Positions 2,487-29,279 of a stretch of DNA of 34,413 nucleotides are shown here, one piece after another. The DNA lies in IMG/VR virus record IMGVR_UViG_3300042468_000353, positions 1 to 34,413 of that record; one strand, 5' to 3'. How positions within the stretch are numbered: the first letter of the stretch is position 1; each line of letters begins with the position of its first letter. The position numbers were made by a program, and so were the translations under genes. The notes under the pieces were generated by a model. That model saw only the letters and a program-made list of their open reading frames with translations. It had not been told where the DNA came from and did no database searches. Source of the DNA: a virus.

Positions 2487-2515
2487 ACTCTACACCCCCT
2501 TGTGACGGTTTGCAA
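2487..2515 (-). promoter_or_regulatory. candidate leftward promoter for recombination operon
   Basis: On the minus strand TTGCAA (2515-2510) is followed after 17 nt by TAGAGT (2492-2487), each matching four of six sigma70 consensus positions. The predicted start is near 2480, giving a leader that contains the palindrome and the heptad array. It overlaps the rightward promoter, so the two would compete. Confidence 0.4.
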
Positions 2516-2528
2516 GTGCTGGCATGAT
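2500..2528 (+). promoter_or_regulatory. candidate rightward promoter of HTH gene
   Basis: TTGTGA (2500-2505), a 17-nt spacer and CATGAT (2523-2528) form a reasonable sigma70 promoter. The expected start, 7 nt past the -10 box, is base 2535, the A of the ATG of the HTH gene. No Shine-Dalgarno sequence precedes that ATG, so the mRNA may be leaderless. Confidence 0.5.
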
Positions 2529-2534
2529 GTCACC

Positions 2535-2906
2535 ATGGAAACACAAATTTTATCTCTTGCAGAGTGGCTGGAAGAGAACAACTTGACACACGAAGAGTTT
2601 GCGCTTATGTGCGGCTGTACTCGCGCTGCCGTGACCCGGTGGGCCAGTGGTTCCAGAGCGCCATCGCCTAAGTGGTTGAAGGTTATTGAGCGCAAGACCA
2701 AGGGTCAAGTGGGTATAGCGATAGAAGGCCGTTTAACCGAGGGAGAACGCATCTATTTAAGCCTTCGGAAACAGGGGCTTACGCTATCTGCTGCGGCGAA
2801 AAAGATACGCATTCATCGCAATACTTTGGCTCGTTTTGTGAGCGGCCAAACAGATACGCCGTCAAACATTGTTGAACGTATATATAAGGTAGCGGGGTTG
2901 AAATGA
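2535..2906 (+). CDS. double helix-turn-helix transcriptional regulator
   Basis: The 123-aa product has two helix-turn-helix units. One spans about residues 16-38 (LTHEEFALMCGCTRAAVTRW) and the other about residues 83-105 (LTLSAAAKKIRIHRNTLARF), joined by a basic linker. Both look like XRE-type domains, so it probably binds DNA as a regulator of the divergent early operons. ATG 2535 is preferred over the upstream GTG 2502 because the best promoter places the transcript start at 2535. No ribosome site precedes either codon. Its stop overlaps the rusA start by 4 nt (ATGA). Whether it represses itself or the leftward operon is not shown. Confidence 0.75.
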   Translation: METQILSLAEWLEENNLTHEEFALMCGCTRAAVTRWASGSRAPSPKWLKVIERKTKGQVGIAIEGRLTEGERIYLSLRKQGLTLSAAAKKIRIHRNTLARFVSGQTDTPSNIVERIYKVAGLK

Positions 2907-10378: not shown

Positions 10379-10587
10379 AACTTCGCCCCGTAATAACGCC
10401 CCACCAACTTGAATGCGTCGATGTGCTGCTTCAGTTCAAACAGATCCGCTGCCTTGTCGGCGCTGAATATGTACATCTGCTTCCCTGCCTTGCGATCCCT
10501 GTAATCTCTCTGAAGCGACTTCAAGGTGATCTTTAATTCCGCTGCCGTGATTTCTTCAAGCAAGTCGCAACTAACTTCAATCTTCAT
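10375..10587 (-). CDS. hypothetical protein
   Basis: This 70-aa protein (MKIEVSCDLLEEITAAELK ... LKQHIDAFKLVGRYYG) is predicted to be mostly helical. The type recurs in podovirus early regions without a known role. It has 4-nt overlaps on both sides. Confidence 0.7.
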   Translation of the reverse strand: MKIEVSCDLLEEITAAELKITLKSLQRDYRDRKAGKQMYIFSADKAADLFELKQHIDAFKLVGRYYGAKL

Positions 10588-10808
10588 ATCTGCTCACCCT
10601 GCTTCCACAGCACATAGTCGTACTGCTTAATCCCTCGGCGTATGGCGGTGCCGATAACGGACTGGCGGATGCCCCACTCTTTTACGAGATCTTTGTAGCG
10701 CACTCGCTCGTTCTCTTCTCTGGCTAATTTCTTGCGCTTCAATACGATCTTGTACTGCTCAAAAGACAGGCGCGGGTTGTAGCGCGAGATCTTGGTATAT
10801 TCGCTCAC
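10584..10808 (-). CDS. small basic protein, possible HTH
   Basis: The 74-aa product is basic, with ENERVRYKDLVKEWGIRQSVIG followed by AIRRGIKQYD. The VKEWGIRQSVIGTAIRR segment has the spacing of a helix-turn-helix, so DNA binding is possible but unproven. It overlaps both neighbours by 4 nt. Confidence 0.65.
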   Translation of the reverse strand: MSEYTKISRYNPRLSFEQYKIVLKRKKLAREENERVRYKDLVKEWGIRQSVIGTAIRRGIKQYDYVLWKQGEQI

Positions 10809-10993
10809 AACACTCGCCCTGCTGCGAAGCCCAGCATCAAGCCAAAAACAAACACCATGATCTCAATGAAGATCATCTCGGCTCGCTCTCTGGCCTTTTC
10901 AACTTCTATGGCGTCAATCTCTGCCAGTAGTTTGGCAATCTCTTCCATTTGCGCGTCTTTTGAGGTGCGCGGCTTTCTAGTTTCAATCTTCAC
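10805..10993 (-). CDS. small single-pass membrane protein
   Basis: The 62-aa product has a charged, coiled N-terminal part (EEIAKLLAEIDAIEVEKARER) and one C-terminal membrane helix (IFIEIMVFVFGLMLGFAAG). I place the start at GTG 10993 because GGAGGG lies 8 nt before it and the GTG overlaps the upstream stop by 4 nt (GTGA). The longer ATG at 11056 has no ribosome site and would run through the 42-aa gene. Confidence 0.65.
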   Translation of the reverse strand: MKIETRKPRTSKDAQMEEIAKLLAEIDAIEVEKARERAEMIFIEIMVFVFGLMLGFAAGRVL

Positions 10994-11118
10994 CAGTAAT
11001 TCCCTCCGCTGCGTCGGCGTGAGCAAGCCCAGTTCGGCTCCGGTACGCTTGCCCATTCTCGGTATGCTTCTGCCTTGCGGCGTTCAATCCAATCTAGGAT
11101 CGTGATCCAGATATTCAT
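10990..11118 (-). CDS. 42-aa hypothetical protein
   Basis: This short gene encodes MNIWITILDWIERRKAEAYR and ends SGGNYW. AAGGA lies about 10 nt upstream, and the end is coupled to the next gene by GTGA. Aromatic-rich small proteins with a WASVPEPxW segment occur in phages. The function is unknown. Confidence 0.55.
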   Translation of the reverse strand: MNIWITILDWIERRKAEAYREWASVPEPNWACSRRRSGGNYW

Positions 11119-11269
11119 CGTTGTCAGTCCTTGCGAGTTCTATTTCGAGTAAGCGTATTTCTCTTTGATGATCTTTTATCCGCTGCCACAGCCAATCGAC
11201 TTTTCGCACTCGGCTTTCGACCAAGCCAACTCTTGGGTCGGGCTGCTCTCCTTCCTGCTTCGACCGCAT
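11084..11269 (-). CDS. small coiled-coil protein
   Basis: The 61-aa product has VDWLWQRIKDHQREIRLLEI, a clear amphipathic helix, and an acidic end. GGGAG lies 7 nt before ATG 11269. It overlaps the 3' part of the 11124-11477 gene by 146 nt in a different frame, and the reading in this frame looks more protein-like across that stretch. Confidence 0.5.
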   Translation of the reverse strand: MRSKQEGEQPDPRVGLVESRVRKVDWLWQRIKDHQREIRLLEIELARTDNDEYLDHDPRLD

Positions 11270-11477
11270 CACACAACTCCCTTATAAGACGATAAACCTT
11301 CGCCATCTTTATGCGCTGCTTCTTGGTTTCTAAATACCGTAGCGACTCCTCTACCGTAGTCGGTCGATGCCGCTTTGAGCGCATGAAATGGCACTTGCCT
11401 TTGTGCTCCGTCTGACAGGTCGGGCATAACTCCACCGGCTTCGGCGGTATACCCCAAGACTGTCTAAAGTCACTCAT
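11124..11477 (-). CDS. small CxxC protein with basic tail
   Basis: The 117-aa product starts at ATG 11477 (GAGGAG upstream) and has LCPTCQTEHKGKCHF, a likely Zn-binding CxxC...C/H site at about residues 17-31, then a basic helix. After about residue 70 the sequence is low-complexity (RRAARPKSWLGRKPSAKS) and coincides with the overlapping 11084-11269 gene. Either the overlap is real or the gene has been extended by a frameshift. The N-terminal half is convincing. Confidence 0.5.
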   Translation of the reverse strand: MSDFRQSWGIPPKPVELCPTCQTEHKGKCHFMRSKRHRPTTVEESLRYLETKKQRIKMAKVYRLIRELCDAVEAGRRAARPKSWLGRKPSAKSRLAVAADKRSSKRNTLTRNRTRKD

Positions 11478-11649
11478 CAATCTCCTCACACTCTTCTTCG
11501 TACTCGTCGATGTTCTCGCTGCCACAAGAGGGGCAACTCTCACATTCAAAGTAACTGACAGATACATACCCGTAGGCGTCATACGCATCCCACACCGTCG
11601 CCCTGTCAGGCTCGTAAAACTTCTCATCACAATTCAAACAGGTGAACAT
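11470..11649 (-). CDS. small zinc-ribbon protein
   Basis: The 59-aa product starts MFTCLNCDEKFYEPDRA and continues to CESCPSCGSENID, giving two CxxC pairs (CLNC, CPSC) for one zinc ion. The C-terminus is very acidic. GGGAGGAG precedes ATG 11649. It is a paralogue of the gene directly upstream, with the same length, pair spacing and FxEP motif after the first pair. A role as transcription or protein-protein adaptor is only a family-level guess. Confidence 0.75.
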   Translation of the reverse strand: MFTCLNCDEKFYEPDRATVWDAYDAYGYVSVSYFECESCPSCGSENIDEYEEECEEIDE

Positions 11650-11813
11650 GGCGGCTCCTCCCACAGTTGAATGGAACCGCTGCCGCAGTAGGGACACACC
11701 TCTTTAATGAGTTCATGGCTACCCAGTTCCTCAGAGAAGTGATGCGTCTCTTTCAACTCACGATACTCAGGCTCGTCAAAGCCCTTCAAACAACTACGGC
11801 AGCGGTACTTCAT
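11634..11813 (-). CDS. small zinc-ribbon protein (paralogue)
   Basis: This 59-aa protein starts MKYRCRSCLKGFDEPEYRE and has EVCPYCGSGSIQL, again two CxxC pairs. It overlaps the downstream paralogue by 16 nt and the upstream gene by 4 nt (ATGA). The FDEPEYRE / FYEPDRA similarity to its neighbour suggests a tandem duplication. Confidence 0.75.
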   Translation of the reverse strand: MKYRCRSCLKGFDEPEYRELKETHHFSEELGSHELIKEVCPYCGSGSIQLWEEPPCSPV

Positions 11814-11977
11814 GCAAATAACTTCGCTATAAAGTGATTCACCATCCGCAGAGCTGCTTCGCTCTCCGCTGCCATCTGCTTTGCAGTCTCCTGCGCCGCT
11901 TTCTCTAACTGTTCCTGCACCTGTGCATATTCTTGATACGCACGATCTAACTCTTGACTCTCTTGCTCGTTGTCCAT
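11810..11977 (-). CDS. small helical protein, first gene of sub-operon
   Basis: The 55-aa product is almost entirely helical and Glu/Gln/Ala-rich (ELDRAYQEYAQVQEQLEKAA ... QMAAESEAALRMV). ATG 11977 has GGAGGG upstream at good spacing. It is the first gene after the promoter-like site at 12003-12031 and is coupled by ATGA to the zinc-ribbon pair. Confidence 0.6.
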   Translation of the reverse strand: MDNEQESQELDRAYQEYAQVQEQLEKAAQETAKQMAAESEAALRMVNHFIAKLFA

Positions 11978-12002
11978 GTGCGTCCCTCCTCGGAACACTA
12001 TT

Positions 12003-12031
12003 GGTATATACAACCGGCTTGCTCAGGTTAC
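12003..12031 (-). promoter_or_regulatory. leftward promoter with spacer palindrome (D)
   Basis: On the minus strand: GTAACC (-35, weak), 4 nt, CAAGCCGGTTG (12021-12011), 2 nt, TATACC (-10). The geometry is the same as three stronger sites at 15456, 15907 and 18302. It lies 26 nt upstream of the 55-aa gene. The poor -35 box suggests a weak or activator-dependent promoter. Confidence 0.5.
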
Positions 12032-12062
12032 GCTCCGCCGATATAAGACGCAACCCCCTTGC

Positions 12063-12710
12063 TTACTGCGCTACAAATCGCAGCATATTTGGGTGAATCA
12101 TTAACGCTGTCTTGCCGCCTAATCGGGGGTACACCAGTATGTGGGGAGAAAATCGACTGCTTAAAAACAAAGTCGCATTAGCTACGCCCTTCTCGACCCC
12201 CTCAAAGTCGTCCAAGATAATCAGCGCGTTCGGGTTCAACCCGCACATCAGATCCACATCATCAGAGGACAGCCGTCCGTCAATATAAAAGCAGTCAATG
12301 TGCTGCTTCTTGAATACGAATTGCTCCTCACAAGGCCAGTCAATTAACTTGCGAAACATCTGCGTCGATGTCGTCTTCGGGAATTGCTCCAAGGCCACCC
12401 CAATGTCGCCCAACCGAATGTCGTTAGACGCATCACAGGTATAAATAACGCCCTGCCGCATACCCGCAGCCAGAGCCTTGGTGGATCGCCCGATATACGT
12501 CCCCACTTCAGCCACCGATACTGGTCTGAAATAGTTAGCAATAGCGCGTAGCTCTCCCATGTCCATCGCTGTCAGGGAGCCAGTTTGATAGTCGGCCTGT
12601 ATCTGCAAGCCCTCGTCGTCAGGCAACGGCATCGGGGTAATCCCATCAGGGGCAATCGCTCCCCATACCGCAGCCGAAAGAGTCATTCGATTTATTTTCA
12701 ACGGATTCAC
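12063..12710 (-). CDS. class I SAM-dependent methyltransferase (Methyltransf_24-like)
   Basis: The 215-aa product has VAEVGTYIGRSTKALAAG (SAM-binding motif I), VIYTCDASNDI (motif II), IDCFYIDGRLSSDDV and ALIILDDFEG, the motif order of methyltransferase family 24. It overlaps the next gene upstream by 4 nt. It is distinct from the 9363-10076 methyltransferase, so the early block carries two different enzymes. The substrate is unknown; small-molecule or glycan methylation is a family-level inference. Confidence 0.8.
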   Translation of the reverse strand: MNPLKINRMTLSAAVWGAIAPDGITPMPLPDDEGLQIQADYQTGSLTAMDMGELRAIANYFRPVSVAEVGTYIGRSTKALAAGMRQGVIYTCDASNDIRLGDIGVALEQFPKTTSTQMFRKLIDWPCEEQFVFKKQHIDCFYIDGRLSSDDVDLMCGLNPNALIILDDFEGVEKGVANATLFLSSRFSPHILVYPRLGGKTALMIHPNMLRFVAQ

Positions 12711-12910
12711 TTGGGTTCCTCCAATATCTGCCCAACGTATTTAGGTATCTCTTGAGTGTGAAAGTAAGACTTGCCCCTCGGGTGCGGGTTGTTCGGATCG
12801 TATGCCGCCCAATAAACCACATCCCTCCCCGTTGCCGTTACTTGACAGAGCAGGGGCATATTCTTGGTGTCGAGCCAATGCTTATGCTCAAAGATCGTTC
12901 CGCGCTTCAT
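12707..12910 (-). CDS. hypothetical protein
   Basis: The 67-aa product contains MPLLCQVTATGRDVVYWAAY and a GKSYFHTQEIPKYV end, predicted as a small beta-barrel-like fold. No family is recognised. 4-nt overlaps on both sides support it as a gene. Confidence 0.65.
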   Translation of the reverse strand: MKRGTIFEHKHWLDTKNMPLLCQVTATGRDVVYWAAYDPNNPHPRGKSYFHTQEIPKYVGQILEEPK

Positions 12911-13116
12911 GCGTCTCCCCCCGCGTGGTCAGTCTCCAAATAGTCCAATGCGGCCTCGTGCATCCGATCACGCTCGGTTTCGTTGCTTGTGTAATACAGG
13001 ATGAAGTTATCCAACACTTCCAGATGTTGCGTCAGGGTGAGTGTTACCCCACCCGATACCTTCCAGACGGGTTCGGATCGCTTGCTGTAATTCGGCGGCG
13101 GGATTAGGTCGGTCAT
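12907..13116 (-). CDS. hypothetical protein
   Basis: The 69-aa product has GVTLTLTQHLEVLDNFILYY followed by ETERDRMHEAALDYLETDH. No family is recognised. It is co-translated with its neighbours through ATGA overlaps. Confidence 0.65.
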   Translation of the reverse strand: MTDLIPPPNYSKRSEPVWKVSGGVTLTLTQHLEVLDNFILYYTSNETERDRMHEAALDYLETDHAGGDA

Positions 13117-13313
13117 GCGGCTTTCTCCCCAAACGGATCGCCAATGTTTGCGTCATATTCAATCTGCAACTCATCGTCGGATAAATGCTCGTAGCCCTTG
13201 AAGCCAAATTGCATATAGTCAGAGAGCAAACCTACGTCACCCCGAAACATGGCTTCGCGGATGTAAGAAATAGATTCTTCCACCAATGCGTCGATCATTT
13301 CTTCGCGGGTCAT
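13113..13313 (-). CDS. hypothetical acidic protein
   Basis: This 66-aa product starts MTREEMIDALVEESISYIRE and ends with DDELQIEYDANIGDPF. It is acidic and helical at the N-terminus, resembling small phage proteins of the TREEMIDAL type. The function is unknown. ATGA overlaps flank it. Confidence 0.65.
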   Translation of the reverse strand: MTREEMIDALVEESISYIREAMFRGDVGLLSDYMQFGFKGYEHLSDDELQIEYDANIGDPFGEKAA

Positions 13314-13537
13314 GCGGCCTCCTCAATCTTGTTAAACCACTCATCCAACACGCCTACTTCTTGCAGAGCGACTTCGATGTTGAAAACAAAATCATGCAAC
13401 ATCTTCGGCATCTCGTTATGCCCGTAGGCTTCGCGTATTGATTCAACCAAACGATAAGCGTATTCCGTATCGCCCTCGTATAACAAACCTTTCTCTCTTA
13501 CTTTGATGATTACTATGTCGTTAGAAATTGCGCTCAT
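13310..13537 (-). CDS. hypothetical protein
   Basis: The 75-aa product has YAYRLVESIREAYGHNEMPK and a helical C-terminus (VLDEWFNKIEEAA). No family is recognised. It has ATGA overlaps with both neighbours. Confidence 0.6.
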   Translation of the reverse strand: MSAISNDIVIIKVREKGLLYEGDTEYAYRLVESIREAYGHNEMPKMLHDFVFNIEVALQEVGVLDEWFNKIEEAA

Positions 13538-13704
13538 GCGACTTCCTCCACGCGCAGGGTTTCTTCTTCGTAGTCCTCTAGGTCGTCTGTTAAATCGACC
13601 GTGAAGTCTTCATGCGCTAACACATAGGCAGCGTCTTCGTCCTCTGCCTCCACGCGCAAGGTTTTAACTACGGTTGCTCGGATCGTCACGTTGTAGGCTT
13701 TCAT
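13534..13704 (-). CDS. MKxY-type acidic mini-protein 1
   Basis: This 56-aa gene sits exactly between its neighbours with 4-nt overlaps. It reads MKAYNVTIRATVVKTLRVEA, then an acidic helix (EDEDAAYVLAHEDF) and LRVEEVA. The beta-beta-alpha layout, with VEA/EAxDxxxA after the second strand, is shared with the gene upstream. The function is unknown. Confidence 0.7.
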   Translation of the reverse strand: MKAYNVTIRATVVKTLRVEAEDEDAAYVLAHEDFTVDLTDDLEDYEEETLRVEEVA

Positions 13705-13898
13705 GCGGCCTCCCGCTTTTCTTTAACGTCTTCGATGAAATCTTCAGCATGGACAACACCGCAATCGGTAAAAGCCTCGTCGTCGTCGTCCCATGTCTCC
13801 ACGGCTACGTCGTGCGCTTCATCCGGCGTGTCGGCCTCTACTTCAATTTGATAAATGCGATGCTCAACTCGGCATAGCGAAACAGTAAAGCGTTTCAT
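13701..13898 (-). CDS. MKxY-type acidic mini-protein 2
   Basis: The 65-aa product starts MKRFTVSLCRVEHRIYQIEV and continues with EADTPDEAHDVAVETWDDDD. It has the same beta-beta-alpha layout as its downstream neighbour (MKxF/YxV...VEA...A), so the two are likely paralogues. It is strongly acidic. The function is unknown; phage mini-proteins of this kind can be host-takeover or anti-defence factors, but that is speculation. Confidence 0.7.
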   Translation of the reverse strand: MKRFTVSLCRVEHRIYQIEVEADTPDEAHDVAVETWDDDDEAFTDCGVVHAEDFIEDVKEKREAA

Positions 13899-14080
13899 GC
13901 GATCACCTCCACGCCCTCTGCATCAATACGCAATCGCTCAACAGGTTTTTCAGTAACGTCAAACACCTCCCAACCTGTTACCTCGTTGCCGATTAGTTCG
14001 TCGAATTGCCATTTCACGGGATGACAAAAACCCTCATCCCCATCTAATTCAATGTGGACTACAACGGCATACTTTTTCAT
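13895..14080 (-). CDS. MKxY-type mini-protein 3
   Basis: The 61-aa product starts MKKYAVVVHIELDGDEGF and ends with VERLRIDAEGVEVIA. It shares the MKxYxV opening and an LRxxAE strand with the two genes downstream, though the middle differs. It is linked by ATGA overlaps. Confidence 0.65.
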   Translation of the reverse strand: MKKYAVVVHIELDGDEGFCHPVKWQFDELIGNEVTGWEVFDVTEKPVERLRIDAEGVEVIA

Positions 14081-14283
14081 GCTGCTACCCCTTGCGGAAA
14101 ATCCGCGTCAATCGTTTGCAGTTGGTACTCGTAACACCAATAACCGTTGTCTAAGTCGTATATTGGCCGCTCGTTCTTCTCAGCTAAATCAATAATGGTT
14201 GCGGGTTTTGGCGGCTCCGTTCCCCATGAACCAGACCACATAACTCGTTGTCCTACTTGGTAGGCATGACTAATTTTTTCCAC
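14077..14283 (-). CDS. hypothetical small beta-rich protein
   Basis: The start is set at GTG 14283, preceded by GAGAGGAATAGCACAA, the same leader type found before three other early genes. The 68-aa product has YQVGQRVMWSGSWG, PKPATIIDL and DLDNGYWCYEYQLQTID, suggesting a small SH3-like barrel. A longer frame to 14343 has no ribosome site and would overlap the upstream gene. The function is unknown. Confidence 0.65.
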   Translation of the reverse strand: MEKISHAYQVGQRVMWSGSWGTEPPKPATIIDLAEKNERPIYDLDNGYWCYEYQLQTIDADFPQGVAA

Positions 14284-14297
14284 TTGTGCTATTCCTC

Positions 14298-14480
14298 TCA
14301 GTTGTTTGTTTGTTCGTTTGTCTTCTTCAGCTCGTCGCCGCACTTCTCACAATAGAAAGCCTTGAACGGCTCACCATCTAGGTCGGCGTAACACTTGCTC
14401 TCCGGCTCCCACTTGTTGCAGCAGATACAGAGAACATTCCACGGTAGCGTCGAATACTGTTTGAGTCGTTGCAGGTTCAT
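14298..14480 (-). CDS. small zinc-finger protein
   Basis: The 60-aa product contains LCICCNKWEPE and FYCEKCGDELKK, giving two CxxC pairs 23 residues apart. The C-terminal KKTNEQTNN is encoded by a short (GTTT)n-like run. ATG 14480 overlaps the preceding stop by 4 nt. A single zinc ribbon is likely; its partner is unknown. Confidence 0.65.
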   Translation of the reverse strand: MNLQRLKQYSTLPWNVLCICCNKWEPESKCYADLDGEPFKAFYCEKCGDELKKTNEQTNN

Positions 14481-14638
14481 ACGCCCTCCTCGCAGTCGCG
14501 CTTGTGATATGGGCAAAGGTTGAGCCGATTCCATTCCTCGCGGGGAACCCTCACCAGTAAAGAATCATCGAAAACCTCGACAACCTCTGCTGATTCCAAA
14601 ATGTCAAAGGCCAATTCAATTTGCTCAAAGTCGTTCAC
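14477..14638 (-). CDS. small hypothetical protein with C/H cluster
   Basis: This 53-aa gene begins at GTG 14638 (a GTGA overlap with the preceding gene) and ends in an ATGA overlap. It reads FEQIELAFDILESAEVVEVF and ends LCPYHKRDCEEGV, with a possible C-H-C metal site. No family is recognised. Confidence 0.55.
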   Translation of the reverse strand: MNDFEQIELAFDILESAEVVEVFDDSLLVRVPREEWNRLNLCPYHKRDCEEGV

Positions 14639-14910
14639 GATTGCACCCCCGTTGCCTTGTTGATAGCGGATCGAATCGCCGCCAGTTTTTTAGAAATGAT
14701 GGGCTGTTGTAGGTCGTCGTCCTCAAAGCCGGACATGAAGATTTCAGCGTCTTGCAATGCCGCCAGAAGATCAGGAGCCGCTGCCATCAATAGCGCGGAA
14801 TTCTCGCTGCTTACTCCCTTGGCTACGGCATTCAATGAGCGCGTCGAGATAACGTCATACGTCGGGGGTGAACCGCATCCATGAAAGTGTTTGAAGACTG
14901 ACCAGTTCAT
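14635..14910 (-). CDS. hypothetical protein
   Basis: The 91-aa product contains SSENSALLMAAAPDLLAALQ, a helical segment very common in phage and prophage accessory proteins, and a C-terminal SKKLAAIRSAINKATG. The common family has no assigned function. ATG 14910 overlaps the preceding stop by 4 nt. Confidence 0.7.
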   Translation of the reverse strand: MNWSVFKHFHGCGSPPTYDVISTRSLNAVAKGVSSENSALLMAAAPDLLAALQDAEIFMSGFEDDDLQQPIISKKLAAIRSAINKATGVQS

Positions 14911-15410
14911 GCTACGGCTCCCAGAGCAGCGGATACTTGATGAGCTTTCATGCGGAACGGCTGCCCATCTGCTACGCGAGTCACCATCCACCCGCGCCGA
15001 TTGCCTTGCGCTCTCTCATTTAGAATGTAAGAAACGCCGCCGTAGTTAATTCGCATTCCCGTGATCGGGCGCGGCTTGGATGCTTTCTTCTTCCAGTATT
15101 CCCGCACCGCTTCGCGCCATCTGGTTGCGCTTTCGTTTAACGGCTCCGTTGCCGTATCAATCAGTCGCAGGGGGCAGTCGTAATAGTAGGGGTGCATGGT
15201 TTCATCCATGTCTTTATATCCCCATCGACCGCTAGACTTGCCTAGTAGAAACAGACCAATCAGCTGCCTTCCTTCTGGCGTTTCAAATTGCGCCCAGAGG
15301 TGATTTCCCCGCAGCGAGTGATCGACAATCTTGGCGTTGCTGTATTGGTTCGGATCAAGCAGATGCTCGACTAGTGCCTCTTTCGATGGCTTACAAAATA
15401 ACCAACCCAT
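14907..15410 (-). CDS. DUF6927-like protein
   Basis: The 167-aa product begins MGWLFCKPSKEALVEHLL and runs through DHSLRGNHLWAQFETPEG, DMDETMHPYYYDCPLRLID and WREAVREYWKKK. This layout (MGW start, YYDCP...) recalls the DUF6927 proteins of phages and plasmids; I name the family from memory and with caution. Its leader CTAGGAGTAGCACAA is one of four near-identical ribosome sites. It is the first gene after the promoter at 15456-15484 and heads the long leftward operon. Confidence 0.65.
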   Translation of the reverse strand: MGWLFCKPSKEALVEHLLDPNQYSNAKIVDHSLRGNHLWAQFETPEGRQLIGLFLLGKSSGRWGYKDMDETMHPYYYDCPLRLIDTATEPLNESATRWREAVREYWKKKASKPRPITGMRINYGGVSYILNERAQGNRRGWMVTRVADGQPFRMKAHQVSAALGAVA

Positions 15411-15455
15411 TTGTGCTACTCCTAGTTGTGTGCTTCGTTGTCGTCGATGGCCTGA

Positions 15456-15484
15456 TCATTACTCAAGCCGCTTGTGTATGTCAA
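15456..15484 (-). promoter_or_regulatory. leftward promoter with spacer palindrome (A)
   Basis: On the minus strand: TTGACA (15484-15479), 4 nt, CAAGCGGCTTG (15474-15464), 2 nt, TAATGA. The -35 box is perfect; the -10 is weak (AATGAT with an 18-nt spacer fits 4 of 6). It heads the long leftward operon beginning with the gene at 15410. Confidence 0.75.
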
Positions 15485-15490
15485 CTGGTC

Positions 15491-15520
15491 AGAAGAAAAG
15501 GCGGGTTTGAAGTCCCCGCC
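15491..15520 (-). terminator. leftward intrinsic terminator
   Basis: On the minus strand GGCGGG (15520-15515) pairs with CCCGCC (15505-15500) across a 9-nt loop, followed by TTTTCTTCT. It lies 7 nt after the stop of the 15527-15844 gene and just before promoter A, so that gene is probably a single-gene unit. Confidence 0.7.
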
Positions 15521-15526
15521 CATGCG

Positions 15527-15844
15527 TCAGGCTGCTTTTCGTCCTCTGGACTTTTTGGTACTTGCGCGGAAATTAACGTGATAGAGAGGCGTTACTTCTT
15601 TCTCTTTATGATCTCCGCTGCTGTCAAAGACCCGTCCGTTTTGCCACCAGTATTCCTTGATACCAGAAACATCGAACACGGCAATTTCAAACTCCTCGCC
15701 GTCGATCTTGAACATCGAACCCATGTCCATCTCGAAAATCTTTTTGCACCGTTCAATCGCGTCGAAAGCCGTCTCGCCGTTGCAGTACGAGCCAACGCCG
15801 CCCATATCAATCAATGCAAAAAACTTGTATGACTTGATAGCCAT
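15527..15844 (-). CDS. hypothetical early protein, own transcription unit
   Basis: The 105-aa product starts MAIKSYKFFALIDMGGVG and includes AFDAIERCKKIFEMDMGSMF, EFEIAVFDVSGIKEYWW and a basic end (STKKSRGRKAA). No family is recognised. AGGAGAA precedes the ATG. It has a strong promoter (15907-15935) and its own terminator (15491-15520), unlike every other gene in the block, which points to an immediate-early product made in quantity. Confidence 0.65.
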   Translation of the reverse strand: MAIKSYKFFALIDMGGVGSYCNGETAFDAIERCKKIFEMDMGSMFKIDGEEFEIAVFDVSGIKEYWWQNGRVFDSSGDHKEKEVTPLYHVNFRASTKKSRGRKAA

Positions 15845-15906
15845 GCGTCATTCTCCTGAGTCAGTTGTTATAGAGCGCGATGGTCGCTTCGTACCACCGT
15901 AACTAC

Positions 15907-15935
15907 ATTATGACACAAGCCGCTTGAGCAGTCAA
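15907..15935 (-). promoter_or_regulatory. leftward promoter with spacer palindrome (B)
   Basis: On the minus strand: TTGACT (15935-15930), 4 nt, CAAGCGGCTTG (15926-15916), 2 nt, CATAAT (15912-15907). Both boxes match five of six consensus positions with a 17-nt spacer. It is the best-matching of the four sites and drives the 105-aa gene. Confidence 0.85.
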
Positions 15936-15941
15936 TGGGAG

Positions 15942-16016
15942 TTTTGCAAAGTTTTGTTAAGATTTGTCAAGACAGATTGTTGTATTGATGCAACAGTTGT
16001 TGTTTTTGTGCAACGT
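15942..16016. repeat. tandem 10-bp and 20-bp repeats
   Basis: Three 10-bp units (TTTTGCAAAG, TTTTGTTAAG, ATTTGTCAAG) run from 15942 to 15971. Then come two 20-bp units at 15977-15996 and 15997-16016, both beginning TTGTTGT and containing TGCAAC (15 of 20 identical). The periods equal one and two helical turns, as in iterons bound on one face of DNA. Confidence 0.65.
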
Positions 16017-16337
16017 CGCCAGAGGGGTCGAGCAATTAGTTTATAAGAAAGAATTGATGAGGCAATTTTTGGGTGGATTCGTAAGTCATTGATTAGGTTG
16101 GATAATTAGGCTGTTTTTTTATTTCTTTATTTTTTATATTTCTTTCATGGTAAATAGACACAGAGGGGTACTGGATAGATATACAGAAAAGAGATATAAG
16201 AAAGAAATATAATAAATATATATATATATATATATAAAATATACTATTTTAAGTCTAATCAATGACTTACGAGCGTCCAATTCTTTCATGTCGAGGGGTA
16301 TTATTTCGTAGAAAGAAATGGGGTAGCAGGTTTCGGG
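16017..16337. other. AT-rich non-coding region with modular repeats, candidate origin
   Basis: No convincing gene lies here. The 17-bp CGTAAGTCATTGATTAG at 16080-16096 recurs inverted at 16255-16271, and GAAAGAATTG (16047-16056) recurs inverted at 16278-16287, in matching order. TCTTTCATG occurs directly at 16141-16149 and 16282-16290, each followed by GAGGGGTA; GAGGGGT also occurs at 16022. Between the arms is a very AT-rich stretch with an AT-dinucleotide run at 16216-16236. Together with the iteron-like repeats just left, this resembles a replication origin or a divergent control region. Confidence 0.55.
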
Positions 16338-16366
16338 TTGCTCAAGCAGGTAGCGGCCTATATACT
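16338..16366 (+). promoter_or_regulatory. candidate rightward promoter of packaging genes
   Basis: TTGCTC (16338-16343), a 17-nt spacer and TATACT (16361-16366) precede the small terminase gene, with an expected start near 16373. The -10 box is good and the -35 moderate. It is the best plus-strand promoter I can see for the late operon. Confidence 0.45.
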
Positions 16367-16406
16367 CAAGCACTAGGCAACGGGCTAACCATGGGAGCGC
16401 GTAAAC

Positions 16407-16958
16407 GTGACGGAGAAGACGCAAGAGGCAACGAACAAGCAGGGGGGCTACCTAGGTAGCGGGTCAGTCGAGAAAGCCGCTCAGAGCGTCCTAGAGCGTC
16501 AAGATGAGAAAGCCGGTGTTATACATAACCACAACACCAGTTCGGCCATAGCCACTATAAAAGACAGTCGCAAGCATCCAGACGCGGCAGTTGCTCAGAC
16601 AGTTGCTCAGATGGTGTTCGCAGGGATGACGCAAGACACGATAGCCAAAGTCCTAAAGATCGGCCTAGACACGCTCCACACGCACTACAAGCATGAGTTA
16701 GACACGGGACAGGCAAGCATGGTGACCGACATTGCCCAAAGTCTCGCGCAACGTGCAAAGGCGGGAAGTGATACCGCTGCGATCTTCTTGCTTAAGACAC
16801 GGGGAGCCGGAAAGTTTACGGAGCGCAACGGGATAGAGCTAACGGGGAAAGACGGTGGAGCAATCGAGATCGCGCAACGTACGGAGATACTCCAGACTGT
16901 CAGCGGCTTACTGAATAAGGGGATCACGATAGACGGGGAAGCCGAGCCCCTAGACTGA
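16407..16958 (+). CDS. terS: small terminase-like HTH protein
   Basis: The 183-aa product has an HTH in VAQMVFAGMTQDTIAKVLKI and LDTLHTHYKHELDTG, followed by AKAGSDTAAIFLLKTRGAGK. This arrangement is typical of putative phage small terminase subunits, which bind the packaging site and load the large subunit. Start GTG 16407 has GGGAG 9 nt upstream. It is separated from terL by a leftward cassette (17015-18330), unusual because the two terminase genes are normally adjacent. The assignment rests on family resemblance and position. Confidence 0.7.
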   Translation: MTEKTQEATNKQGGYLGSGSVEKAAQSVLERQDEKAGVIHNHNTSSAIATIKDSRKHPDAAVAQTVAQMVFAGMTQDTIAKVLKIGLDTLHTHYKHELDTGQASMVTDIAQSLAQRAKAGSDTAAIFLLKTRGAGKFTERNGIELTGKDGGAIEIAQRTEILQTVSGLLNKGITIDGEAEPLD

Positions 16959-16962
16959 GCGC

Positions 16963-16990
16963 AAAAAAAAAGGGGGAGAAAATCCCCCCC
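16963..16990 (-). terminator. leftward intrinsic terminator
   Basis: On the minus strand a run of Gs (16990-16984) pairs with CCCCC (16976-16972) across about 7 nt, followed by nine Ts (16971-16963). It ends the ArdC cassette against the terS gene. It is G/C-only in the stem and has a clean U-tract, so confidence is high. Confidence 0.85.
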
Positions 16991-17014
16991 CTAGTGTTGA
17001 ATTGTGGCGGCTTG

Positions 17015-17203
17015 TTAGGCGGCTTCGACTATTTCGGCAACGGTCGACCCTGCTCTAATTCTGTACCCTGTTTCGATTCTCTCAAGCCGAAATGTTTTCT
17101 TGTTTCTTCGATACCCTTTTAACAATTTAGCGATTTTTTCTCGCGTTTCTATTTCTTGAATCATTGGACTATCAACGAATCGGAAAATAAATTGCTTTTT
17201 CAT
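17015..17203 (-). CDS. hypothetical small basic protein
   Basis: The 62-aa product (MKKQFIFRFVDSPMIQEIET ... VAEIVEAA) is basic with a beta-alpha-beta look. AAGGGG lies 6-7 nt upstream. No family is recognised. As the last gene of the ArdC cassette it may share an anti-defence role, but that is only guilt by association. Confidence 0.6.
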   Translation of the reverse strand: MKKQFIFRFVDSPMIQEIETREKIAKLLKGYRRNKKTFRLERIETGYRIRAGSTVAEIVEAA

Positions 17204-17214
17204 GTTGTTTCCCC

Positions 17215-18111
17215 TTAGGCGGCTTCGGTAACGTCTTCGGCTTCGGCTTTCCCCGTGAGCATTTCGGCGGCTTCACGCGCTAGGCTTGCGGCTTTGAAAA
17301 TGGCTTTCTTATCTTGCTTCAATACCGTGAGCCAGTTGTTAAGATACTGAGCGTGATCGACTCGCGGTTCGTTTGAAATACTGAGAGCAGCACAGCAAAA
17401 AGCCGCACCTAACTCTGCGACCAATTCTTCAAAGGCGTAGGCATTGCTTCCGAAATTGTTCAGAAGTTTGCGATTCTTGCGCGACTCATGGCCTGTCCAA
17501 TGTACCAATTCATGCGCGAGTGTTGAGTAATAGCACTCCGTTGCGCTACTGGTTGCCGTTGCCGTGAATAGTTGTTTCTCCGGCATTTTGATAACGTCAA
17601 GCATAGGCGAGTAACAGGCTCGCGGCTCCATGGAGTGCCGGATATTCGCGCCAGTATTTCGCGCCCATGCTTCTACACGCTCGATAGTTTCAACATCGTT
17701 CTTATGATCGTCTTCGGTAACGTATCGGCAACGCTCCGCCAATGCTCCGTCAACTTGATCGGCATTAAAGACATTGAAGTATTTAAGCATCGGAAAAACA
17801 GACTTCTTGCCAGTTTGCTTATCTTCTTTCTCTAACTTAGTGAAGAAGACGACAATGCTGCTTTTCTGCCCTTTCTTAACTGAACATCCGGCGGCTTGCC
17901 ATTGCTTGAATGACGCAAACGCGCAAGATTCGAACGGAGTGAAATTCAGAAGAAGACTATTCATTCCCCGATAGTTTTTTCCCGTTGTCGCGTTATATGG
18001 CCGGAGCGCGTTTCTCTTTTTGTTGAATGGGTTAGTCCAATTCTTGCCGGAAGTCTCCATCTGTTTGATGACTTGATCGGTTACGGACTGATAGAGATCG
18101 AATGTTGCCAT
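17215..18111 (-). CDS. ardC: ArdC-like antirestriction protein
   Basis: The 298-aa protein has both ArdC domains. The N-terminal ssDNA-binding part (about 1-125) includes NPFNKKRNALRPYNATTGKN and YRGMNSLLL. The C-terminal zincin-like metalloprotease part (about 140-290) has HELVHWTGH at 200-208, giving H200, E201, H204 and H208, with a downstream EELVAELGAAF. ArdC family proteins protect incoming DNA from restriction enzymes. The gene follows an early-type promoter and a conserved CTAGGGAATAGCACAA leader, which fits expression early after injection. All visible active-site residues are intact. Confidence 0.9.
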   Translation of the reverse strand: MATFDLYQSVTDQVIKQMETSGKNWTNPFNKKRNALRPYNATTGKNYRGMNSLLLNFTPFESCAFASFKQWQAAGCSVKKGQKSSIVVFFTKLEKEDKQTGKKSVFPMLKYFNVFNADQVDGALAERCRYVTEDDHKNDVETIERVEAWARNTGANIRHSMEPRACYSPMLDVIKMPEKQLFTATATSSATECYYSTLAHELVHWTGHESRKNRKLLNNFGSNAYAFEELVAELGAAFCCAALSISNEPRVDHAQYLNNWLTVLKQDKKAIFKAASLAREAAEMLTGKAEAEDVTEAA

Positions 18112-18127
18112 TTGTGCTATTCCCTAG

Positions 18128-18268
18128 TTATTTGTTGATATTGATGACGCAAAGAATCCAGAGCGTTACGAAAAGAAAGCAATTTAGGCGAAAGAGAAAA
18201 ACGTCCATTTTTTTGCTCATAAGAAAGTGATTAAGCCGGAAAAGAAAAGCGTTTGATTTTTTGCTCAT
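18128..18268 (-). CDS. 46-aa protein with internal tandem duplication
   Basis: This short gene reads MSKKSNAFLFRLNHFL and then repeats the block as MSKKMDVFLFRLNCFL before a hydrophobic tail (FVTLWILCVIN). The two 48-nt halves align end to end. It is likely membrane-associated through the tail. AGGGA lies 8 nt before the ATG, in a CTAGGGATAGCACC leader. It is first in the ArdC cassette. It could instead be a duplicated leader fragment; a product has not been shown. Confidence 0.5.
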   Translation of the reverse strand: MSKKSNAFLFRLNHFLMSKKMDVFLFRLNCFLFVTLWILCVININK

Positions 18269-18301
18269 GGTGCTATCCCTAGTTGGTTATTCGACGGGGA
18301 T

Positions 18302-18330
18302 ATAATGAGCGCAAGCCGTTTGTGTGTCAA
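18302..18330 (-). promoter_or_regulatory. leftward promoter with spacer palindrome (C)
   Basis: On the minus strand: TTGACA (18330-18325), 4 nt, CAAACGGCTTG (18322-18312), 2 nt, CATTAT (18307-18302). The -35 is perfect and the -10 is fair. It drives the ArdC cassette. Confidence 0.8.
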
Positions 18331-18620
18331 CATATATTTATCCCCCCATGATGCTATGTAATTCTGACTAGTATTTAGTTGCAGATAGTGGCGGCAAGAT
18401 TGGTGCAAGAATGAGAACGGAAAGCAATGCGCGAATGATTCTCAAAAAGTCCCTGAGACTCCCTATCAACTGAAAATGAGAATCAGTCGCATGGGTGCTG
18501 GCATGGGGGAGCGCGAAAACGACACACGGGGGTACGGGTCCCATCTGCCCAAACAATCTCCCAACCCCACTCCAACTTTTACTTGCCCTACCCCCTTGCG
18601 CACGTTTACTCTAGGGTCCC
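18331..18620. other. non-coding gap with inverted repeat
   Basis: No gene is convincing here. TGATTCTCA (18436-18444) and TGAGAATCA (18477-18485) form a perfect 9-bp inverted repeat separated by 32 nt, and a related TGAGAA occurs near 18412. Two GGGTCCC sites lie at 18536 and 18614, the second touching the ATG of the next gene. I see no clear plus-strand promoter. Confidence 0.45.
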
Positions 18621-19175
18621 ATGCTATATACCGGAGCCGCCCCCCTACCCCGCCACACCTACTGCTACGTGCAGCCCGACACATTCGGCAACGAAGACTG
18701 GGTACGGGTAGCGTGGTTTGGATTGGTGAGTCATCCGGGCAGAACGTGGGGATGTCATGTGATGTTGGAATGTGGGGCGGTGTACCGGAACGTCCCGCTG
18801 CACAAGCTCGCGCACAAAATCACAGGGACCCCTTGGGACCCCGCCGACGCACAAACGTGGGATTGCTACGGGAACCAGTTCAGCGTGCTGGAGTATCCGT
18901 TTCTCGAAGGGACCCGAATGCGTACCCGGCTACGGTCTAAGCAGGAACACACCGGTAACTACTTGTTTACCGCGATCCCGATGATGGACGGATTCAGTCT
19001 AGAGCCGGAGCAGAGCAAGGAGTTCTACTTCATCAAACTGGACAACGGGCGTTATACAGCGCAACCTACGAACCACGTTTTGGTGCTAGATAAATCGTTC
19101 ATCACCGAAGCCAACTGGCCGAAGTTGAAGCGTCAAACTGAGATTTGGAGTGTTGACAATGGCAACGAAGTCTAA
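18621..19175 (+). CDS. hypothetical protein upstream of terL
   Basis: The 184-aa product is rich in aromatic residues and strands (DWVRVAWFGLVSHPGRTWGC, CGAVYRNVPLHKLAHKI, GNYLFTAIPMMDGFSLEPE). I recognise no family. The only ribosome-like site is AGGG within the GGGTCCC that touches the ATG, so the start is tentative. Its end overlaps the next gene by 17 nt. Position suggests a packaging or virion role, not proven. Confidence 0.6.
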   Translation: MLYTGAAPLPRHTYCYVQPDTFGNEDWVRVAWFGLVSHPGRTWGCHVMLECGAVYRNVPLHKLAHKITGTPWDPADAQTWDCYGNQFSVLEYPFLEGTRMRTRLRSKQEHTGNYLFTAIPMMDGFSLEPEQSKEFYFIKLDNGRYTAQPTNHVLVLDKSFITEANWPKLKRQTEIWSVDNGNEV

Positions 19176-19341
19176 AGTAAACGCAGCGGGTAACTACACG
19201 AAACCCGAGATGCGCAAGAAGTTGTTTAACGAGATTAAGGCATCCGCAACCCAAGGCACCGCAGCAGGCCAATGGTCAGCCCGTAAGGCGCAGCTCTTAG
19301 CCAAACGCTACAAAGAGAAGGGCGGCGGGTACAAGGACTAA
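19159..19341 (+). CDS. DUF5872-like small basic protein
   Basis: The 60-aa product has NYTKPEMRKKLFNEIKASAT and WSARKAQLLAKRYKEKGGGY. This pattern (YTxPExRxxL... QWSARKxQLLAxxYxxxGGGYK) occurs in phages and large algal viruses, called DUF5872 in my recollection. GGAG lies 8 nt before ATG 19159. The high Lys/Arg content suggests nucleic-acid binding; the function is unknown. Confidence 0.65.
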   Translation: MATKSKVNAAGNYTKPEMRKKLFNEIKASATQGTAAGQWSARKAQLLAKRYKEKGGGYKD

Positions 19342-19344
19342 GCC

Positions 19345-19578
19345 ATGAAAGCACCTCAGAAATCTCTTAAGGATTGGACCGCGCAAGAATGGCGCACCAA
19401 GTCAGGCAAGCCGTCATCGCAAACTGGCGAGCGGTATTTACCTAAGGCAGCGATCAACGCGCTTTCTCCGCAGGAATATGCAGCCACCACTCGTGCTAAG
19501 CGTGAGGGCAAGGCGCAGGGTAAGCAGTTTGTAGCGCAGCCGAAGAAGATTGCGAAGAAGACCTCGCGATACCGGTAA
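19345..19578 (+). CDS. small basic protein (KSLKDWT/RTKSGKPS type)
   Basis: This 77-aa product contains LKDWTAQEWRTKSGKPSSQT and GERYLPKAAINALSPQEYAA, a motif pair seen in short proteins of phages and giant viruses, often next to the GGGYK-type proteins. It ends in a strongly basic tail. It follows its neighbour by 3 nt and precedes terL by 3 nt. The function is unknown. Confidence 0.65.
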   Translation: MKAPQKSLKDWTAQEWRTKSGKPSSQTGERYLPKAAINALSPQEYAATTRAKREGKAQGKQFVAQPKKIAKKTSRYR

Positions 19579-19581
19579 TCC

Positions 19582-21072
19582 ATGTCGCAACAAGCGTCTG
19601 GGACCCCGCCCAAAGTTGATCTCAACGATCCGCTGATCAAGGAGCTGAATAAGCTACCGCTGCCGGATTTGTTGGCATACAAGAGCCGGTTGGAGTGGGC
19701 GAGTAAACGTCACAAACACCAAAAGCCGCCGAAGGGTGATTGGACTGTGTGGTTGATGCTCGCTGGTCGTGGCGCGGGTAAGACTCGTGCGGCAGCGGAG
19801 TGGGTGTGGTGGCAGGCGTACAAAGCGCCGGAAACGAGATGGCTGGTGTGCGCACCGACCTCGGCTGACATTCGCGACACTTGCTTTGAGGGTGATTCCG
19901 GTTTGATCTCGGTCATGCCAGAGAAAATCGTGGGCGAATACAACCGCTCGCTCTCGGAGATTATTTTAACCAATGGGTCCCTGATCAAAGGGATCAGCGC
20001 GGAGACTCCCGACCGGCTCCGTGGTGGTCAGTGGCATGGTGCGTGGACGGACGAGCTGGCTGCGTGGCAGTACGACCAAGAAGCGTGGGACATGATTATG
20101 TTTGCGCTACGTCTAGGGTCCCATCCACGAATCGTTGCCACCACCACTCCGAAGCCCAAGGCCATCATTCGGGATCTGGTGGAGCGTGACGGAGCCGATG
20201 TACACGTTACGAGGGCCTCGACTTACGAGAACATTGCGAATCTAGCGCCGACTTTCCAGCAACAGCTCTTGAAGTTTGAGGGCACGACGCTCGGACGGCA
20301 GGAAATTCACGCCGAAGTCTTAAATCCGGAAGAGCAGGGCATCATCAAGCGCCCTTGGGTTCAGCTCTGGCCAGCGAAAAAGCCCCTGCCCATACTGGAA
20401 CACATCGTGATGAGCCTAGATACGGCCTTTACGGAGCAGACTCGCGACAAGAAAACCTCAGATTCCGACCCCAGTGCGTGTGTGGTACTCGGACTTTTCT
20501 ACGAAAACGAGAAACCAAACATCATTTTGCTCGATTGTTGGGAAGATCGGCTTGGAATGCCCGATTTGATCCAGCGAGTGAAGCGAGAGATGGAGGTTTT
20601 CTACGGCGACGATGAGCAAAAGCCGATGATTAAGCCGAAATTTGGTCCCGGTCGCATGTTAAACACCGGAAGAAAGCCCGATACCATCGTAATCGAAGAC
20701 AAAGGCAGCGGAATTTCGCTTCGGCAGATGCTGGCACGCGAGGGAATCATCGCTCACGCTTACAATCCGGGAAAAGCGAGCAAACTCACTCGATTGCACA
20801 TGGTTTCGCACCTATTTGCGAGCGGAATGGTGTGGTTTGTGGAGTCTGATAAGCGAAAAGGTCAGATTCGCTCGTGGGCGGAGCCATTGTTGTATCAACT
20901 GTGCTCGTTTTCGGGTGAGGGAACCATCAAGCATGACGATTTGATGGACGCTTGCACCCAAGGTTTACGTTTCCTTGCCGATAAAGATATGATAAGCGTG
21001 AGTAAGCCTAAGCCGTTGCAGCCTAGGATGATTGTGAACGAGCGCCCAAGAGGTAATCCGTATGGCGTCTAA
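19582..21072 (+). CDS. terL: terminase large subunit
   Basis: The 496-aa product carries both terminase activities. The ATPase has Walker A AGRGAGKT (61-68) and Walker B GAWTDE (D157, E158), followed by ATTTPKPK as the coupling motif. The RNase H-like nuclease has SLDTAF (D280), IEDKGSG (E372, D373) and HDDLMDA (D452, D453). It translocates DNA into the prohead and cuts it. Length is typical. Its end overlaps the next start by 11 nt. It is separated from terS by the ArdC cassette and three small genes. Confidence 0.97.
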   Translation: MSQQASGTPPKVDLNDPLIKELNKLPLPDLLAYKSRLEWASKRHKHQKPPKGDWTVWLMLAGRGAGKTRAAAEWVWWQAYKAPETRWLVCAPTSADIRDTCFEGDSGLISVMPEKIVGEYNRSLSEIILTNGSLIKGISAETPDRLRGGQWHGAWTDELAAWQYDQEAWDMIMFALRLGSHPRIVATTTPKPKAIIRDLVERDGADVHVTRASTYENIANLAPTFQQQLLKFEGTTLGRQEIHAEVLNPEEQGIIKRPWVQLWPAKKPLPILEHIVMSLDTAFTEQTRDKKTSDSDPSACVVLGLFYENEKPNIILLDCWEDRLGMPDLIQRVKREMEVFYGDDEQKPMIKPKFGPGRMLNTGRKPDTIVIEDKGSGISLRQMLAREGIIAHAYNPGKASKLTRLHMVSHLFASGMVWFVESDKRKGQIRSWAEPLLYQLCSFSGEGTIKHDDLMDACTQGLRFLADKDMISVSKPKPLQPRMIVNERPRGNPYGV

Positions 21073-21763: not shown

Positions 21764-21774
21764 TGGTGAGCGCC

Positions 21775-29198: not shown

Positions 29199-29213
29199 TT
29201 CTAGGTGTAACCA

Positions 29214-29256: not shown

Positions 29257-29279
29257 GACTCGTGCATGAGGATATTTCA

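What the first reader, a model, noticed from the sequence alone, without database searches (positions are those of the whole stretch)
15527..15844. One unknown gene with its own strong promoter and terminator
Within a block otherwise read as long operons, the 105-aa gene is bracketed by promoter B, the best-matching of the four, and a terminator just before promoter A. This is the layout of an immediate-early, highly made protein.
Basis: partly seen in the sequence, partly recalled or inferred. Interest (0 to 1): 0.5.

Follow-up and report, generated by a model that had tools for sequence, protein, structure and literature searches.

The report
Swappable early phage gene under repressor-type promoter
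In an uncultured group of bacterial viruses, this small gene is one of several swappable passengers behind matching promoters that carry the same switch-like sequence, one of which drives a known anti-restriction gene, so it is probably an early tool against the host, though its function is untested.

Summary
The 105-aa gene (15844-15527, minus) is a real gene (dN/dS about 0.02-0.08). It starts 62 nt after an extended -10 promoter (B) and ends at a hairpin terminator that is conserved in relatives through compensatory changes. Promoter B is one of three minus-strand promoters (A, B, C) that carry the same 15-bp palindrome, CNCAANCNGNTTGNG, between -35 and -10; these are its only copies in the window. 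C leads to an ArdC anti-restriction gene, A to a 167-aa unknown. In 81 loci of the virus family the palindrome occurs 74 times (0 for the reversed control), mostly inside promoters, whose first genes fall into about 25 families. In one relative the 105-aa coding sequence is replaced almost exactly from start to stop codon, while promoter and terminator stay nearly identical. I read this as a repressor-switched early regulon of exchangeable host-takeover or anti-defence genes, working like plasmid establishment regulons and Aca-controlled promoters. The repressor is unproven; the best candidate is a tandem-HTH protein at 2502-2906. 'Immediate-early' is plausible but untested, and 'highly made' rests on promoter sequence alone. 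The function of the 105-aa protein is unknown.

The parts
15527..15844 (-). 105-aa payload gene of unit B (the finding)
   Evidence: homologs in L002 (same contig as L011, L047, L102) and L003, 93 and 94% identical, and a 28% relative in Citromicrobium phage vB_CbaS-RXM
15907..15935 (-). promoter B (-35 TTGACT 15935-15930, -10 CATAAT 15912-15907, TG extension)
   Evidence: conserved in relatives
15914..15928 (-). operator in promoter B, CTCAAGCGGCTTGTG
15491..15520 (-). terminator of unit B: 6-bp GC stem, conserved 9-nt loop, T-rich tail
15455..15484 (-). promoter A (TTGACA-18-AATGAT) with operator CACAAGCGGCTTGAG at 15462-15476
14907..15410 (-). first gene of unit A, 167 aa, unknown function (phrog_21047, 1e-09)
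18302..18330 (-). promoter C (TTGACA-17-CATTAT) with operator CACAAACGGCTTGCG at 18310-18324
18128..18268 (-). 46-aa leader ORF of unit C, containing a 48-bp tandem duplication
17215..18111 (-). ArdC-like anti-restriction protein, 298 aa, unit C
   Evidence: ArdcN 3.7e-28, MPTase-PolyVal 3.2e-48; phrog_7245, 8.5e-76
2502..2906 (+). tandem-HTH protein, 134 aa, candidate operator-binding repressor (inferred, not shown)

Best explanation
The 105-aa gene is the exchangeable payload of one unit in a phage early regulon. Each unit has a strong host-sigma70-type promoter with a 15-bp palindromic operator (CNCAANCNGNTTGNG) in the -35/-10 spacer; in unit B a conserved-loop terminator follows the gene. 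Steps: (1) on entry the host RNA polymerase transcribes A, B and C because no repressor is present (inferred); (2) payload proteins, among them ArdC and the 105-aa protein, act against host defences or functions (ArdC by homology; the 105-aa protein inferred from the shared operator and the swapping); (3) a phage DNA-binding protein accumulates, binds the operator and excludes polymerase, ending expression (operator shown by conservation, binding inferred); the best candidate is the tandem-HTH protein encoded just before RusA and the primase (2502-5510); (4) recombination in the near-identical flanks swaps payloads between related phages (the swap is shown, its route inferred).
For: Operator: 74 sites in 890,034 bases of 81 family loci, 0 for the reversed pattern, 0-4 for ten permuted palindromes; of 57 distinct sites 38 have a promoter with 3 or fewer mismatches of 12 around them, against 6 of 600 random centres. 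Exactly 3 in the window, all in promoters; 16 in ten long records, window included (8 of 10 have any), control 0. Shared with ArdC: 9 of 9 ArdC loci (8 exact, 1 with one mismatch); TerL 0 of 82 exact, 1 with one mismatch. Payload diversity: 71 promoter-operators, 62 with a called first gene, 25 clusters. Exact swap: window against L025 aligns on both sides but not over 15537-15839; from the -35 region to the start codon there are 4 substitutions and from the stop codon through promoter A 2, while the CDS differs. Terminator: 96.7% of cells paired, 14 compensatory cells, 0 of 500 shuffles for either. HTH candidate: match in 8 of 9 long relatives. Analogues in print: PMC8708921, PMC9410906, PMC9410881, PMC11065993.
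Against: No expression or binding data. The tandem-HTH gene has no operator copy near it, and none of 10 non-family records that matched the operator-promoter pattern showed it (most are short fragments, some matches are probably chance, and the tool warns that an empty answer without a positive control shows little). In G004 the slot-B stretch is replaced, but the 103-aa ORF there lies upstream of the operator, not behind it, and three other stretches of the window also fail to align to G004. In L047 the exact operator before ArdC has no clear promoter (6 mismatches). No counter-defence activity is known for any payload except ArdC, and that by homology. The Citromicrobium relative lies five genes from one annotated AcrVA2, weak support. 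Sites come from related loci and are not independent.
Confidence: 0.55

Rival explanations
1. Lysogeny switch: the palindromes are operators of a CI-like repressor that keeps early promoters silent in a prophage, and unit B is an ordinary early lytic gene.
For: Several operators read by one HTH-type repressor fit this; the candidate is HTH_3 type and weakly RstR-like, far below that model's cut-off.
Against: No tyrosine integrase domain (PF00589) in 10 of 10 records, control ringing in 14 of 14 genomes; records may be fragments and other integration routes were not tested. The HTH gene precedes RusA and primase genes with no operator near it.
Confidence: 0.18
2. Moron or accessory cassette: a foreign gene that came in with its own promoter and terminator and is expressed independently of phage regulation.
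For: Own promoter, own terminator, payload swapped between relatives.
Against: The promoter is not foreign: it carries the family operator, also found before ArdC and the 167-aa gene.
Confidence: 0.12
3. The palindrome is read by a host regulator, or acts as an activator site, not as a phage repressor site.
For: The binding protein is unproven; some viral contigs outside the family match the same pattern.
Against: A promoter-operator pattern with the exact CAAGCSGCTTG core has 3 hits in the genome collection, all in Bacillota contigs; two of them look like one conserved coding stretch (gene calls not made). A site between -35 and -10 usually represses (general knowledge).
Confidence: 0.1
4. 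The 105-aa protein is a replication accessory: the gene sits beside an AT-rich, inverted-repeat region at the GC-skew minimum that may be the origin.
For: Position; strong purifying selection.
Against: The gene is replaced by ORFs of no detectable sequence similarity in close relatives, which an essential replication gene should not be.
Confidence: 0.12

Closest known systems
Aca-controlled anti-CRISPR operons (PMC9410906 and PMC9410881, passages seen)
   Same: Inverted-repeat operator inside the core promoter of an early counter-defence unit; HTH-type regulators; for Aca10 two 10-bp half-sites one base apart, overlapping -35 and -10.
   Different: Here one operator type serves at least three separate promoters, no HTH gene was recognised in units A, B or C, and no anti-CRISPR activity is known.
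Establishment regulon of Bacillus plasmid p576 and relatives (PMC8708921, passages seen)
   Same: ardC and unknown genes behind several promoters with one shared operator type; genes replaced between relatives; transient expression on entry is the proposed logic.
   Different: There a ribbon-helix-helix repressor (Reg) binds direct TTATCCC pairs upstream of -35 (at two of four promoters also downstream of the start) and controls its own gene; here a palindrome lies in the spacer, the candidate is tandem-HTH, and no operator was found near its gene.
Early regulatory sequence of archaeal viruses such as SIRV2, used to predict anti-defence genes (PMC11065993, abstract and passages seen)
   Same: Many small, mostly single genes share one strong promoter plus regulatory motif within a genome; most payloads unknown.
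   Different: Archaeal TATA/BRE promoters and Aca8; here sigma70-type promoters in a tailed phage family, a conserved terminator in unit B and an observed exact CDS swap.
Phage P1 C1 repressor with many scattered operators (recalled; one search gave listings only)
   Same: One repressor type reading many operators over a phage genome.
   Different: P1 sites are recalled as asymmetric and serve lysogeny; no integrase domain was found here.

Membership tests
acr-aca operon | inverted repeat within the core promoter | tested here: met
acr-aca operon | aca (HTH) gene in the same operon as the payload | tested here: not met
   unit B holds one gene before its terminator, with no domain hit; the HTH gene recognised is at 2502-2906
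acr-aca operon | payload inhibits CRISPR-Cas | not testable with these tools
   needs an assay
p576-type establishment regulon | ardC under the shared promoter-operator | tested here: met
   window; family: 9 of 9 loci (8 exact, 1 with one mismatch; in L047 the site lacks a clear promoter)
p576-type establishment regulon | same operator on several promoters of one element | tested here: met
   3 sites each in the window, G001 and G005; promoters
p576-type establishment regulon | RHH repressor whose own promoter carries the operator | tested here: not met
   candidate is HTH_3; no operator with up to one mismatch near 2502
early regulatory-sequence regulon (archaeal-virus type) | strong promoter plus regulatory sequence shared within one genome by small, mostly single genes | tested here: met
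early regulatory-sequence regulon (archaeal-virus type) | transcribed immediately after infection | not testable with these tools
   no transcriptome at hand
moron | own promoter and terminator | tested here: met
moron | carried and expressed by a prophage | tested here: inconclusive
   no integrase domain in 10 of 10 records, but records may be fragments
same protein family as the 116-132-aa payload found in slot B of relatives | sequence-profile homology | tested here: inconclusive
   hhalign probability 1.9% and 0.6%, HMMER E about 300, none; yet the predicted order of strands and helix agrees

The most novel reading that the evidence does not exclude
A whole lineage of uncultured, possibly strictly lytic tailed phages carries a plug-in counter-defence regulon: a single-chain tandem-HTH repressor that reads one palindrome without needing a dimer switches off several separately promoted units, and the roughly 25 payload families, the 105-aa protein included, are mostly new anti-defence proteins that can be mined with the operator as bait.
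Probability: 0.3. Interest if true: 0.8.

Novelty: new variant of a known kind. Interest (0 to 1): 0.58.

Why it matters
It gives a sequence handle, one operator-promoter code, for finding early host-takeover and anti-defence genes in a virus family that has no close record in the phage collection searched (no megablast match; best TerL about 50% identical). It would extend to tailed bacterial viruses a regulatory bait already used for archaeal viruses (PMC11065993) and plasmids (PMC8708921). An exact CDS swap inside a fixed promoter-terminator frame makes the exchange of early genes directly visible and testable.

Tried and rejected
Tried without result for the 105-aa protein: Pfam, PHROGs and NCBIfam (none); PDB sequence profile (five matches, best E 0.23); Foldseek PDB and BFVD (none at E <= 0.001); VIA-align (best Z 4.6, within what the tool calls common for chance). 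The model is only moderately confident (pLDDT 74.6, 3 sequences). The plasmid collection and the genome collection gave no homolog; a second viral scan gave only the two already known contigs. Rfam over 14000-19000: none at gathering score. The two best BFVD matches of the 131-aa payload (E 0.007 and 0.018, probability 1.00; the second an uncharacterised protein of Pseudomonas phage PaMx11, the first without a name) were not followed up.

Rejected: that the 105-aa and 116-132-aa slot-B payloads are proven homologs (profile tests failed; only a short motif around FLA/FFA..G..GS[WY] and the order of predicted elements agree). That the tandem-HTH protein explains every operator match: none of 10 non-family records showed it. 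That DnaA boxes mark an origin in the window: no exact box, 9 one-mismatch hits against 5.1 expected, reached by 6 of 100 shuffles. A print search for CAAGCGGCTTG gave 6 papers, unrelated by title and abstract start. The listings showed no description of this regulon; only that library was searched.

Full report
What was checked. The window is a virus record of 34,413 bases, probably part of a genome of about 56 kb: its close relative G004 is 56,247 bases and aligns at 97.5% over 12 kb. The minus-strand ORF 15527-15844 (105 aa) has an AGGAG ribosome site and starts 62 nt after the -10 box of promoter B. Codon-position counts and dN/dS of about 0.02-0.08 among three sequences show a protein under strong purifying selection. 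The promoter is TTGACT-17-CATAAT with a TG extension. It ties at 10 of 12 with two others, A and C, and promoter-like sites as such are at chance level in 9000-22000 (10 found, 10.5 expected).

The shared operator. The spacers of A, B and C hold the same odd palindrome, CNCAANCNGNTTGNG. It occurs exactly three times in the window, always there (also no further copy with one mismatch); over ten long records, window included, 16 sites lie in 8 of 10, none for the reversed control. In 81 family loci (80 of the 172 TerL relatives, plus the window; 890,034 bases) there are 74 sites, 0 for the reversed pattern and 0,0,3,0,0,0,4,0,0,0 for ten permuted palindromes. Of 57 distinct sites 38 have a promoter with at most 3 mismatches of 12 (13 have 4, 5 have 5, 1 has 6), against 6 of 600 random centres. 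These loci are related, so the counts are not independent events. A pattern with the exact core has 3 hits in the genome collection, all in Bacillota contigs, two of them in what looks like one conserved coding stretch (gene calls were not made), so I see no host regulon. The same kind of pattern gave 17 viral stretches; 10 of these lie outside the family and some look like chance matches.

What the promoters drive. C leads, past a 46-aa leader ORF, to an ArdC-type anti-restriction protein. In 84 family loci searched, ArdC is found in 9 and the operator lies within 330 nt upstream in all 9 (8 exact, 1 with one mismatch); several of these are near-copies (W and L022, L023 and L101, L031 and L059), and in L047 the site has no clear promoter (6 mismatches). 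For the 105-aa gene it is 3 of 3, for the 167-aa gene of promoter A 4 of 6, for TerL 0 of 82 exact and 1 with one mismatch, for TerS 1 of 57 and 7, for the gene at 18621 8 of 62 and 23. Of 71 distinct promoter-operators 62 had a callable first gene, in 25 clusters at blastp 1e-4 (the ORF caller is simple and may miss genes behind leaders or split diverged families). Nine payload types were put to Pfam: one hit DUF7007, one DUF7249, two GP88, five nothing.

The payload is swapped. Between the window and L025 there are 4 substitutions from the -35 region of promoter B to the start codon and 2 from the stop codon (TGA against TAA) through the terminator and promoter A, but the coding sequence between is a different 132-aa ORF. 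In L025 the 167-aa gene is missing too. In G004 window 15436-16181 has no counterpart and a 103-aa ORF stands there; however, that ORF lies upstream of G004's operator and not behind it, and window 13128-13521, 17028-17214 and 28287-29293 also fail to align, so that replacement is less clean. L014 and L071 keep operator-promoter and hairpin around a 90-aa ORF in a cluster of its own. The 116-132-aa payload is itself widespread: 53 viral loci. In the 18 with at least 55% identity the operator is exact in 17 and one mismatch off in 1, about 80 nt before the start codon; of the 35 more distant loci none has it with fewer than 2 mismatches (one had no upstream DNA).

The terminator. GGCGGG-GACTTCAAA-CCCGCC-TTTTCTTCT follows the stop codon. 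Of 15 slot-B downstream stretches all have such a hairpin; 13 beat all of 100 shuffles and 2 are reached once; in 5 of 15 (L002, L030, L036, L054, L070) the T-run is weak. Over 13 distinct 25-mers, window included, 96.7% of pair cells are standard, 14 cells are compensatory and the covariation score is 0.491, each reached by 0 of 500 shuffles; the number of pairs changed on both sides (4 of 7; 177 of 500) and of pair types (86 of 500) is not unusual; slid registers score 0.07 or less on covariation. Most of these hairpins were picked by their loop, so loop conservation is partly by selection; still, the loop recurs behind other genes (L003:7287, L063, L064, L091).

The regulator. A 134-aa protein with two HTH stretches at 2502-2906, just before RusA and a primase, has a match in 8 of 9 long family records, one of them with an internal TGA. 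Seven aligned relatives at 45-100% identity keep R41, A43, V44, R46, R106, N107 and T108 (their role in DNA reading is inferred). Scans of 62 of 84 ORFs of G004 showed HTH domains in one member, by position this gene (one search hid 1 of 26 families). Records with close copies have more operator sites (99%: 2, 93%: 3, 70%: 3, 66%: 2, 62%: 1, 59%: 1, 44%: 1 and 0, no match: 0), but kinship confounds this. Against it: no operator near its own gene and no match in 10 non-family records. I put it at about 0.45 as the binder.

The 105-aa protein itself. No domain hit. Besides L002 and L003 its only relative found is a 28% identical protein of Citromicrobium phage vB_CbaS-RXM, five genes from one annotated AcrVA2. 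AlphaFold models of the 105-aa and the L031 131-aa payload, both of moderate confidence, show the same leading order, beta-beta-alpha-beta-beta-beta and a further strand, but sequence profiles do not link them and no solved or viral model matched the 105-aa model well. Homology is therefore open.

Reading. The closest working analogues are the p576 plasmid establishment regulon, where ardC and replaceable unknown genes share an operator-promoter and are expressed transiently on entry (PMC8708921, passages); Aca-repressed anti-CRISPR promoters with inverted repeats in the core promoter (PMC9410906, passages; PMC9410881, passages); and the early regulatory sequence of archaeal viruses used as bait for anti-defence genes (PMC11065993, abstract and passages). 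It works like these but is not a member of the first two as defined: no HTH gene was recognised in the payload units, and the candidate repressor is neither RHH nor, as far as seen, self-controlled through this operator. No integrase domain was found in 10 of 10 records, so a lysogeny switch is less likely but not excluded. Shown: gene, promoters at sequence level, operator by conservation, terminator, swap, shared operator with ArdC. Inferred: early timing, repression, counter-defence role, identity of the repressor.

Noticed in passing
window 16000-16300: AT-rich, TA-repeat region with an 18-nt perfect inverted repeat (16079-16096 / 16255-16272) at the minimum of cumulative GC skew, between TerS and unit B; recognisable in L003 and more weakly in L002, where an exact DnaA-box-like TGTGGATAA lies nearby. 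Possible replication origin.
   Followed up: partly
window 15491-15520 and L003:7287, L063:84, L064:4669, L091:3768: Hairpin with a conserved 9-nt loop GACTNCMAA reused behind different genes; loop conservation is more than an intrinsic terminator needs, though the hits were picked by loop.
   Followed up: partly
L002 7827 and 7909; L003 5113 and 5195: A further exact CAAGCGGCTTG core 82 bp upstream of the promoter-B core in both relatives, not seen in the window.
   Followed up: no
window 18173-18268: 48-bp tandem duplication (77% alike) inside the 46-aa leader ORF before ArdC.
   Followed up: no
family loci, upstream of the gene matching window 18621-19175 (probably sites such as L073:194, L076:8701, L077:7289): Operator-like palindromes also occur within 330 nt upstream of this gene in relatives (8 of 62 exact, 23 with one mismatch, counts only; the link to the named sites is inferred).
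   Followed up: no
L154, L156, L158, L163-L166: Distant relatives of the 131-aa payload in other phages share a different upstream block, CTTGACAAGTATGGGAT: the payload seems to move between regulons.
   Followed up: no
L009, L010, L017: Contigs without a tandem-HTH match that share a promoter TTGACACACAAGCCGCTTGAGTGTATAAT; what reads it is unknown.
   Followed up: no
L115:3475-4120 (G004): In G004 the operator is followed directly by the hairpin GGCGGGGACTGCTAACCCGCC and only then by a 78-aa ORF and the 167-aa gene; an odd order, possibly a deletion scar.
   Followed up: no
window 6153-7655: TPR-repeat protein of up to 500 aa in a leftward block of small genes that also holds two methyltransferase-like genes.
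   Followed up: no
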